Under the pieces are notes generated by a model. The model saw only the letters and a program-made list of their open reading frames with translations, was not told where the DNA came from and made no database searches. The translations under genes and the position numbers were made by a program. From Perkinsus chesapeaki (Eukaryota > Perkinsozoa > Perkinsida > Perkinsidae), in the NCBI GenBank assembly GCA_013115145.1, contig JAAPAO010000097.1, forward strand, positions 1-64,000: a stretch of DNA of 64,000 nt, read 5' to 3'. Positions 55,301 to 58,300 of the stretch are shown piece by piece. The first letter of the stretch is position 1. Each line of letters begins with the position of its first letter.

Positions 55301-58300
55301 GGGAGCCAGGCCGACTAGTAGTTATATGTTACTAATATATCATAACTCCATTATTATCGGAGGGAGCGTTTGGGAACAGAATAACTGAGGGATGCTCGTC
55401 TTTGTTAACAACATTACTGTCCCGCAGACCCGATATGATTGTTGCCACACCAGGGAGGCTGCTGGATATGATGTCGGATGGAAGTGTGTGTCTGAGGAGG
55501 GTTACGTTCTTCGTGGTGGATGAGGCCGATAGGATGATACTGCTGGGGTTCTGGAAGCAAGTTAAAATGGTAAGAATGTAATTGTGGACCTGGTGGGGAA
55601 GTATTAGTGCGACGGTGGACGCCGACTTGATGGGTGTAGGTGGTCGTAGAAGATCGTAGTACGCTTATATCGATATTATTGGTTGGGTGAAATAGTATAA
55701 TAATTATTAATTGTATTAAGCGTAGTTAGTGATACAATTGGACCAATTCAATGAGTTGGTTTTATAATACAGGATTGGATTCGACATAATATGTAGCTCA
55801 ATATTCATAATAATATTATTAATAATTAATATTAATGAATGTTATACTTATATGTTACTACCGAACATGGAAATCAATATTATAATTCGTTTCATTCGCC
55901 TCACTTCTCAATAGACCTCCCGAGAGTATCTGCTTGACCGGTCGATGAATTTGATTATTTACGCTTGATCGATAGCTCATGGCTCGCTCAGTCTGTACAG
56001 TTTTACCGTAAAACTTTTACGAAGTATAAAGAGATATCTTTTATATCGTATTACACAATATTGCGAGTCCGCCAGCCTGGTCATTTGCCTTTATTTCTCA
56101 ATTATCAGATATCTGGTCAAATTCGTCCGGACCGACAGTGCATCATGTTGAGTGCTACATGGCCTAAAGAGGTGAGTATCGGGTAGGGGCGGGATGGTGG
56201 GGAAGTGGGTCTATTAGTTCAAGCCTCAAGCTTGAATAGCTTACAGTCTGTATAGTCATGGATGGGCATTAATAATCATAAGTCTATTGGAAAGAGTGAT
56301 GGTCGATATAGTAGAATATGAATAAAGAGCTGTTGGAAGCGGGGTTGTAATAGTAATGGTAGTAGTAGAGGTATGTACGACAGTTAATCAGTAATAAGAT
56401 GAAGTTGAAATTAACATGACTAACATTGTAGGTTTTGAATAGATATTATATGACGTCCCTGAGGGTTGTAGGGGTTAATTTTATTTCCAATAGGCGGAGC
56501 GAAGCGTTTCATGTTTTCCGTTTCTAGGTGAGAGACATATCATTAAGGCTGTGCCGTGAGAATCCTGTACACATTAATGTGGGAGAGGTGTCGGATAATA
56601 TCAACGATGCAGATCACTTCAATAGGGAGAAACAGAGGACAGCTCGATCGGTTAAGCAGGTTGGTTTGTATGCGAAAGGTCGTGGGTTCGAACCTGGCCT
56701 TTGGTATTTTAGGAGATTATTTGCCTACCGCGAGGGGATAAATATTATCATCTCCTGAACGAGTTGTTGCCCAAGTGCTTTGAGGAGCATGATAATAAAA
56801 AAAGGGACACGAAGGTGATAATTCGCCTTACATGATAATAATAAATGATGGAAATATGACAACCTATGCTTAGATAACGATTCTTCAGTTTAGGACATTG
56901 TTGGTCCTCTTCAATCCATATCTGTATCGTATTTTATTACGAATCTATGAAACCTGTATTTGTAGGAATGGATTAATTTCTAATCTTCGCTCACCTTCGC
57001 GAGAGAGAGCTTGGTGGATTTCGCGAAATACCTGCAAGAAAATATGATATAAAAAATAACATCGCTTTTCTCGATCTAGCGGGAAAGCATTTTCTACTTT
57101 TTGCTCTCCGATAGGGTTCCTTTTTTTCGAAATTTTATTTGCATTTATCGAAGGTATTGATTTTCACTTCCGGCAAGAAATCGGTTGACAGTTTGGTGGA
57201 TTGTCTGCGAAGGATCGGCTGGCCAGCGGTGGGCATACATTCGGGGAAGGAACAGGCCGAAAGAGAATGGGTAGTGGTTGTGGTTAATCTTGCAATCTTG
57301 GTAAATTTTGCATTTCCGTAGATTTTTGACCAGTTCAAAGGACGTCTTAATACTGAGGATCATGTGAGGGCTAAGAGATCTGAGGCTGTGATTCTGGTGG
57401 CTACGGACATTATGGCGAGGGGGATGGACTTTGTCAGTGTAATAGAGGAGGGAGGGGGAGGGGAGGTAATGGAGTTTATATTCACCAGATAATATAGTTT
57501 ATGTTTGTATAATTGTGGATAAGCGTATAGATTACTGATCACAACTCGCAACTTGCATTTGGTGAGAAAGCTAGTTTCAATTGTATTCACTACAAACTAG
57601 TTTTATTATCAGTTCTATTATTAGCTTTAATATTAGTTTTATTATTAGTTTTATTATTAGTTCTATTATTAGTTTTAGTATTAGTTTTATTATTAGTTTC
57701 ATTATTAGTTTTATTATTAGTTCTATTATTAGTTTTAGTATTAGTTTTATTATTAGTTTTATTATTAGTTTTATTATTAGTTTTATTATTAGTTTTATTA
57801 TTAGTTTTATTATTAGTTCTATTATTAGTTTTATTATTAGTTTTATTATTAGTTTTATTATTAGTCTTCTTCTGGTCAGGTCCGTTACGTAATTAATTTT
57901 GATTTTCCCGAGTCTTGTGAAGACTACATTCATAGAATAGGGAGAACAGGCAGAGCTGGCCATGAAGGCAACGCCTACAGCTACTTTACGGAGAAGGATT
58001 TCTGGGTCGCAAAGTAATAAGGAGAGGGCCGTGGGTTCGAACCTCAGGAGGGGTATTTTCTAATTGATAGGGAAATGGTTCCACTGCTACGAGAATCTAA
58101 TGTGGAGATTCCACCGATGATGGAGAAGGTGGCTTTGGATCCGAGTTATTGGCCAAGGCATGTTGGGCGGGGGGTAATACGGAAGAAGGAGGGAGGTGTT
58201 GCTTTACTTGCTCTCGCTGAACTTTATAGTTCCCGAGGAGGGGGGCACTATAATGACTTAGTTGAGGAGATCTGTTGAGTAGTATTTTATTGAGTGTGTC

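What the first reader, a model, noticed from the sequence alone, without database searches (positions are those of the whole stretch)
56660..56712. tRNA 3'-half-like elements act as, or seed, spliceosomal introns
Seen directly: introns at 5676-5721 (reversed), 56660-56712 and 58014-58070 consist almost wholly of a T-arm/B-box (GGTTCGANNCC) plus a T-run, and the introns at 15999 and 60315 begin with the same element within ~15 nt of the donor. In the sense copies the T-run (TATTTTAG) leads into or lies near the acceptor; in the antisense copy the reverse complement of the element's 5' end (CCTTTCAG) provides the acceptor. All flanking exons join in phase and match TBCD, GDT1 or the DEAD-box helicase. 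Introners are known in several protists, but a tRNA/Pol III-derived introner family able to splice in either orientation is, as far as I know, not described.
Basis: partly seen in the sequence, partly recalled or inferred. Interest (0 to 1): 0.92.

Follow-up and report, generated by a model that had tools for sequence, protein, structure and literature searches.

The report
tRNA-half repeats that became introns
In a single-celled organism probably related to Perkinsus, short copies of the back half of a tRNA, together with the signal that ends tRNA transcription, appear to sit in protein genes as complete tiny introns, which would be an undescribed source of new introns.

Summary
The window carries a repeat of about 38 nt with strict tRNA 3'-half geometry: variable loop, T-arm B-box, 10 nt, position-73 A, T-run. 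The strict form has 390 genome matches against 0 for the reversed control (some may be tRNA genes). A profile finds 13 non-tRNA copies in 124 kb, very roughly 3,000 per genome. Several copies form whole introns by protein homology: MCM4 (41 nt), MCM AAA-lid (55), NSUN2 (44), BCAT (54) and a DEAD-box helicase in the window (53 and 57). The T-run lies where a polypyrimidine tract should, and GTRRG donors lie within 40 nt upstream 3.5 times as often as in control windows. Antisense introns exist (CCT-delta, 47 nt; TBCD, 46 nt), but antisense donors are not enriched overall. No target-site duplications were detected; almost all copies lack a longer body, though a rare longer form exists. The best protein match is Perkinsus olseni. 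It works like an introner; eight literature searches listed no tRNA-derived one. The insertion mechanism is inferred; no RNA-seq or sister-strain test was possible.

The parts
5676..5721 (-). 46-nt TBCD intron (GTGCAC..CCTTTCAG) holding one element in antisense (element 5677-5714, plus strand)
10217..10254 (+). element copy with the longer repeat's 5' head at 10156-10172; gene context not resolved
15161..15198 (+). degenerate element copy (GTTCCA core) with head at 15110-15126, lying between the two GDT1-like coding stretches of the minus strand
15956..15999 (-). donor GTAAGC (15999) plus element (15956-15993) at the 5' start of a GDT1 intron, sense; acceptor not fixed
47098..47135 (-). element copy, gene context not resolved
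56660..56712 (+). 53-nt helicase intron made mostly of one element (56674-56711): donor GTTGGT, acceptor TATTTTAG
58014..58070 (+). 57-nt helicase intron with element 58023-58060: donor GTAATA, acceptor TTGATAG
60315..60352 (+). donor GTAAGG formed by the element's own 5' end, after an open frame of 190 codons with no Pfam match; acceptor not fixed

Best explanation
A repeat family descended from the 3' half of a tRNA precursor (anticodon loop or variable loop, T-arm, 3' acceptor strand, A73, Pol III terminator) has spread to an estimated 3,000 sites in a Perkinsus-like genome, and a number of copies in coding sequence are themselves complete spliceosomal introns. SHOWN: fixed tRNA geometry; a T-run and almost never CCA; variable 5' ends; whole-intron copies in conserved genes at the protein level; donor and acceptor enrichment. 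INFERRED: the copies arose as 5'-truncated copies of unprocessed Pol III transcripts, probably by reverse transcription from the U-rich end. The Pol III terminator then doubles as polypyrimidine tract; AG comes from the landing site; the 5' splice site comes from the 5' junction or from tRNA letters (for example GTAA of an anticodon loop, or GT+AAGG of the variable loop). Copies in exons that splice cleanly survive. Now and then an antisense copy also splices.
For: Genome-wide fixed spacing: 390 strict matches against 0 control; 31 of 32 TTTTTAG matches have the same 10-nt gap although 5-13 was allowed. Conservation runs from about -12 to +27 and stops (90 copies; part of the set was chosen for TTTTTAG). 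Longer copies keep anticodon-loop letters outside the selected stretch: T33 in 19 of 31, A37 in 22 of 31, A or T at 38 in 29 of 31 (at least 3 of the 31 are true tRNAs). T-run after position 73 in 58 of 88 cores, CCA in 2, neither in 28. A-box-like letters upstream in 8 of 83 against 1.5% of control windows (p 5e-5). Homology across junctions: MCM 91 bits and a gapless MCM4 chain, MCM_lid 68.7 and RsmB/F 54.5, NSUN2, BCAT, helicase twice, CCT-delta antisense. In the 41-nt MCM4 intron the 38-nt element leaves no room for an older intron. Sense donors GTRRG 24 of 53 against 12.9% (p 8e-9); AG directly after the T-run 9 of 53 against 4.9% of 3,197 other T-runs (p 0.001).
Against: No target-site duplication signal (78 copies), so retroposition is not proven. 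The T-stem is not kept: commonest pair 49-65 is G-G (39 of 83), no covariation (3.67 pairs of 5 against 3.76 shuffled), so copies descend from degenerate master(s), not straight from working tRNAs. Rfam's tRNA model lists none of the elements at E up to 10 in 20 loci; one element drew a chance-level tmRNA T-arm match (11 bits, E 2.8). Of 26 sense spliced models scanned with Pfam (36 built, for 35 copies), 3 gave a junction-spanning domain above its cut-off, 3 a fitting one below it, some only noise-level matches, the rest nothing useful. At least 2 of 13 sample copies appear to lie outside coding introns. No RNA data.
Confidence: 0.75

Rival explanations
1. Intron transposition: one master intron carrying the tRNA-like letters spreads by reverse splicing.
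For: No target-site duplications; strong sense bias of donors; 32 genome matches end exactly in ATTTTTAG; some introns begin GTAAGG at the element edge.
Against: 5' ends vary (predicted introns 33-92 nt in 36 models), letters between donor and core are not shared, and longer copies keep different anticodon letters, unlike copies of one intron. Some copies appear to lie between genes or in antisense introns.
Confidence: 0.2
2. Ordinary SINE debris: a tRNA-related SINE inserts anywhere and introns merely tolerate it.
For: A rarer longer repeat (head TAGGYCTTCRTGACGAA, 15 hits against 2 control with up to 1 mismatch) lies about 60-190 nt upstream of some B-boxes; some copies sit at the start of longer introns or outside coding regions.
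Against: Introns of 41 and 44 nt consist almost wholly of the element, so these are not inserts into an older intron. Donors hug the element. Conservation stops at the core and long flank matches are rare.
Confidence: 0.2
3. DNA-level capture: tRNA-gene fragments filled into double-strand breaks, some spliceable.
For: No target-site duplications.
Against: Filler should take any part of tRNA genes; the copies found share the 3' half with terminator and their own consensus, which by eye differs from the tRNAs sampled. The searches were keyed to the B-box, so 5' fragments would have been missed.
Confidence: 0.1
4. Convergence: a splicing or TFIIIC-site constraint created B-box-like letters in unrelated introns.
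For: B-box-only TFIIIC sites are known in yeasts (recalled, not looked up).
Against: Constraint on a B-box does not explain G46, C48, the fixed 10-nt gap, A73 and T-run together.
Confidence: 0.03

Closest known systems
Introners / introner-like elements (Gozashti et al. 2022, PMC9860276; passages seen)
   Same: Many sequence-similar short introns in unrelated genes of one genome; some known families lack target-site duplications and inverted repeats, and some take both splice sites from the landing site.
   Different: Letters derive from a tRNA 3' half with Pol III terminator; variable 5' ends. tRNA, SINE and Pol III occur 0 times in that paper's main text.
Amoebophrya introner elements (Farhat et al. 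2021, PMC7789003; passages seen)
   Same: Alveolate, repeated introns.
   Different: Those are non-canonical introns with inverted repeats and direct repeats at the borders; here GT-AG, and no flank duplication was detected.
tRNA-related SINEs; single SINE-derived plant introns and mammalian tailless tRNA retropseudogenes (recalled, not read)
   Same: tRNA origin, RNA copying, truncated ends.
   Different: Here the 3' tRNA half alone, ending at the terminator, makes whole introns.
Perkinsus marinus introns (PMC3101222; passages seen)
   Same: Introns 39-1622 bp, majority under 100 bp, GT/AG.
   Different: No intron repeat family in the 12 passages shown.

Membership tests
Introner | many sequence-similar introns in unrelated genes | tested here: met
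   six sense introns in four genes (MCM twice, NSUN2, BCAT, helicase twice) with homology across the junction; 390 strict copies of the repeat in the genome, of unknown intron status
Introner | precise splicing that leaves the coding sequence whole | tested here: met
   gapless across the junction for MCM4, NSUN2, BCAT, helicase; protein level only, no RNA
Introner | recent gain: presence/absence at orthologous sites | not testable with these tools
   no relatives of this genome held
DNA-transposon type introner | target-site duplications | tested here: not met
   flank matches equal shuffled pairs, 78 copies; duplications of a few nt, or with an unknown 5' border, cannot be excluded
tRNA-derived SINE | Pol III A and B boxes | tested here: inconclusive
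   B-box in every copy by selection, A-box-like in 8 of 83
tRNA-derived SINE | body or LINE-like tail beyond the tRNA part | tested here: inconclusive
   no conservation outside the core; a rare longer form exists
Functional tRNA gene | full cloverleaf | tested here: not met
   5 of 95 copies called as tRNA by ARAGORN were removed, 90 were not called; Rfam tRNA lists none in 20 loci; T-stem mismatched

The most novel reading that the evidence does not exclude
A new route of intron gain: Pol III transcripts of tRNA-like 3' halves are copied into genes, and tRNA processing signals are reused as splicing signals (terminator as polypyrimidine tract, anticodon or variable loop letters as 5' splice site, and at times their complement as antisense acceptor), giving ready-made introns in large numbers in a perkinsid, usable at times in both orientations.
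Probability: 0.45. Interest if true: 0.9.

Novelty: new variant of a known kind. Interest (0 to 1): 0.77.

Why it matters
Where new spliceosomal introns come from is a long-standing open question. In the survey whose passages I saw (PMC9860276), most introner families outside ascomycetes carry DNA-transposon signs and others have no known source. A family with a known kind of parent molecule (a tRNA 3' half) and known parent signals would make intron birth testable letter by letter and would link Pol III transcripts to intron gain.

Tried and rejected
A coding-bias score could not tell exon flanks from control because codon usage is nearly flat; I used homology instead. Target-site duplications: none. 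One first regex was wrong and returned nothing, corrected. Rfam tRNA model: no element listed. 18S pattern for naming the organism: no hit; family RF01960 did not complete twice; I took kinship from one protein instead. A BLAST of the longer repeat found only itself. The antisense case L067, which by eye looks like an alpha/beta-hydrolase, found no support in Pfam or PDB, so I do not count it. Other Pfam matches of the spliced models at E 0.003-0.1 below their cut-offs (Rootletin, MauJ, MZB, S1, EF-hand, a 12.9-bit CDtoxinA match and the like) I take as noise or as not touching the junction. Perfect acceptor pairing by eye in L067 was not used: among about 90 copies I judge one such case near chance (my estimate, no call).

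Full report
WHAT IS THERE. The window is contig C882:1-64000 of a 35.4 Mb, 884-contig genome. The B-box core GGTTCGANNCC occurs 8 times against 0.31 expected. Seven of the 8 belong to a longer, rigid element: variable-loop letters (AAGGTC), T-arm, 10 nt, A, T-run. On tRNA numbering (recalled) this is position about 41-48, T-arm 49-65, acceptor strand 66-72, discriminator 73, then the Pol III terminator. Aligning 90 copies (5 ARAGORN tRNAs of 95 removed) shows conservation from about -12 to +27 around GTTCGA and none outside. Columns used for selection are not evidence, and the AG at +26/+27 partly reflects loci chosen for it; the other columns are evidence.

HOW MANY. GTGGGTTCGANTCC: 89 genome hits against 0 for the reversed pattern; of the 30 fetched, 3 are tRNA-Arg genes by ARAGORN. 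GGTTCGANNCC plus 5-13 nt plus ATTTTTAG: 32 against 0, and 31 of 32 have the same gap. GGTTCGANNCC-N10-ATTTT: 390 against 0 (the first 100 or so were listed; tRNA genes were not removed). A profile scan of 124 kb (the window plus C1:1-60000) gives 18 hits at 14 bits or more and 0 in three Markov controls; 5 are tRNAs, 13 are elements. The profile was trained partly on these copies, and the window was chosen for them; the 60 kb alone holds 5. Scaling gives about 2,900-3,700 copies, a rough figure.

tRNA ORIGIN. In 31 copies chosen for AAGG-type letters (at least 3 are real tRNAs), unselected positions still look like an anticodon loop: T33 19 of 31, A37 22 of 31, A or T at 38 in 29 of 31, C40 26 of 31, while position 34 is spread over all four letters; the 5' stem strand 27-31 does not pair better than shuffled (2.19 against 2.03 pairs, p 0.11). 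So the usual 5' end seems to lie in or after the anticodon loop. Of 88 cores not chosen for a T-run and not full tRNAs by a crude filter, 58 have the T-run, 2 CCA, 28 neither (some of the 28 are reverse readings of palindromic cores): mature tRNA was not the source. An A-box-like motif lies upstream in 8 of 83 against 1.5% of control windows (p 5e-5). Against direct descent from working tRNAs: the T-stem's outer pair is mostly G-G (39 of 83) and does not covary. The tRNAs I sampled share the geometry but, by eye, not the family consensus; the sample lacks many isotypes.

INTRONS. I built 36 spliced models for 35 sense copies and scanned 26 of them with Pfam. Three span the junction above cut-off: MCM (1-53 to profile 111-163, intron 41 nt), MCM_lid (37-106 to 3-72, intron 55 nt, same locus L041), RsmB/F (18-126, intron 44 nt). 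Three fitting ones span it below cut-off: Trehalose_PPase 15.5 bits, PK_Tyr_Ser-Thr 14.9, zf-HC5HC2H 15.1 for a trimmed piece (the whole PHD model scored 36.5 in two stretches). The others had no informative hit. PDB searches add a gapless 47-aa match to MCM4, NSUN2, BCAT across a 54-nt intron that keeps a CTCTCAA loop, and helicases across both window introns (the first with only 7 residues on the left). A Perkinsus olseni protein covers the second helicase junction gaplessly. The exact introns are printed.

SPLICE SIGNALS. In 53 copies not chosen for AG, AG follows the T-run directly in 9, against 4.9% of 3,197 other T-runs (p 0.001); AG within 12 nt is no more common than in control (32 of 53 against 52.8%); GTRRG lies within 40 nt upstream in 24 against 12.9% of control windows (p 8e-9). 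One of the 53 is a tRNA-Ile and was dropped, where GTRRG or GTAA occurs in 32 of 52 against 21%. The mirror test for antisense donors is negative: 11 of 52 against 16%, p 0.35. Single antisense introns are nonetheless credible: CCT-delta on C1 (GTAAGAT..GTTATAG, 47 nt; Pfam 35.1 bits over a cut-off of 34.3; PDB E 7e-12 with two single-residue gaps near the junction) and TBCD in the window (weak over the junction). Nine antisense models were scanned; only CCT-delta passed a cut-off.

CONTEXT OF THE 13 SAMPLE COPIES. Seven appear to lie in coding-gene introns: 5677, 15161 and L062 in antisense; 15981, 56674, 58023 and 60315 in sense. Of these 60315 has no homology support, and 15161 is placed only by lying between GDT1-like stretches. 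Two appear to lie outside: L065:4974 between two ORFs, the second with a DnaJ domain; L066:9684 just upstream of coding letters of an Rpb2-type gene, where a 5'-UTR intron cannot be excluded. Four are unresolved: 10217, 47098, L063:4323, L064:5947. Enrichment in introns over intergenic DNA was therefore not measured.

MECHANISM. No flank duplication (78 copies: mean longest match 4.21 against 4.17 shuffled). All-against-all comparison of the loci, of which I saw the 70 longest rows (76 nt and more), shows only tRNAs, overlapping stretches and one duplicated pair, L006/L021. Those two and window 10156 and 15110 share a head, TAGGYCTTCRTGACGAA, with 15 genome hits against 2 control, upstream of the B-box: a longer, rare form whose other copies I could not fetch. 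I favour copying of unprocessed Pol III RNA from its U-rich end with 5' truncation, and survival of spliceable inserts; reverse splicing of a master intron is the main rival. Neither is shown.

ORGANISM AND PRINT. The best-scoring protein match to the helicase is Perkinsus olseni, 85% identity over 47% of the query (8,000 candidates scored, 120 listed); one gene, so 'perkinsid' is likely, not proven. PMC3101222 (passages) reports Perkinsus introns of 39-1622 bp, the majority under 100 bp. Eight searches, combining introner with tRNA, SINE, polymerase III or transposable element, tRNA-derived with intron gain, tRNA fragments with intronization, and Perkinsus with introner or SINE, listed no paper whose title or abstract start names a tRNA-derived introner family. 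I saw listings, plus passages of PMC9860276, PMC3443670, PMC7789003, PMC12730881 and PMC3101222; PMC9860276 has no mention of tRNA, SINE, Pol III or Perkinsus in its main text. The library lacks most subscription journals and all bioRxiv preprints, so this is not proof of novelty.

Corrected: eight literature searches, not nine; six introns in four genes, not five; the 60315 gene was scanned and has no Pfam match.

Noticed in passing
window 10156-10254 and 15110-15198; L006:1368-1525; L021 (minus strand): A rarer, longer repeat with head TAGGYCTTCRTGACGAA upstream of the tRNA-half; 15 genome hits, at least 7 of them within about 190 nt of a B-box seen in other calls.
   Followed up: partly
window about 57590-57870: Long minisatellite of TTATTATTAGTT-type units inside a helicase intron (by eye).
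   Followed up: no
window about 16400-16600: Tandem repeat next to the GDT1 gene, partly reading N (by eye).
   Followed up: no
window about 48000: GC skew flips from negative to positive, near a change from mainly minus-strand to plus-strand long ORFs (by eye).
   Followed up: no
G000 contigs C440 and C328: Clusters of high-scoring tRNA matches a few hundred to a few thousand bases apart; the three read (two on C440, one on C328) are tRNA-Arg(TCT).
   Followed up: partly
L040:915-995: Hairpin-like repeated stretch with a below-threshold Rfam match to MIR8024 (34 bits, cut-off 57.3), perhaps a tandem repeat.
   Followed up: no
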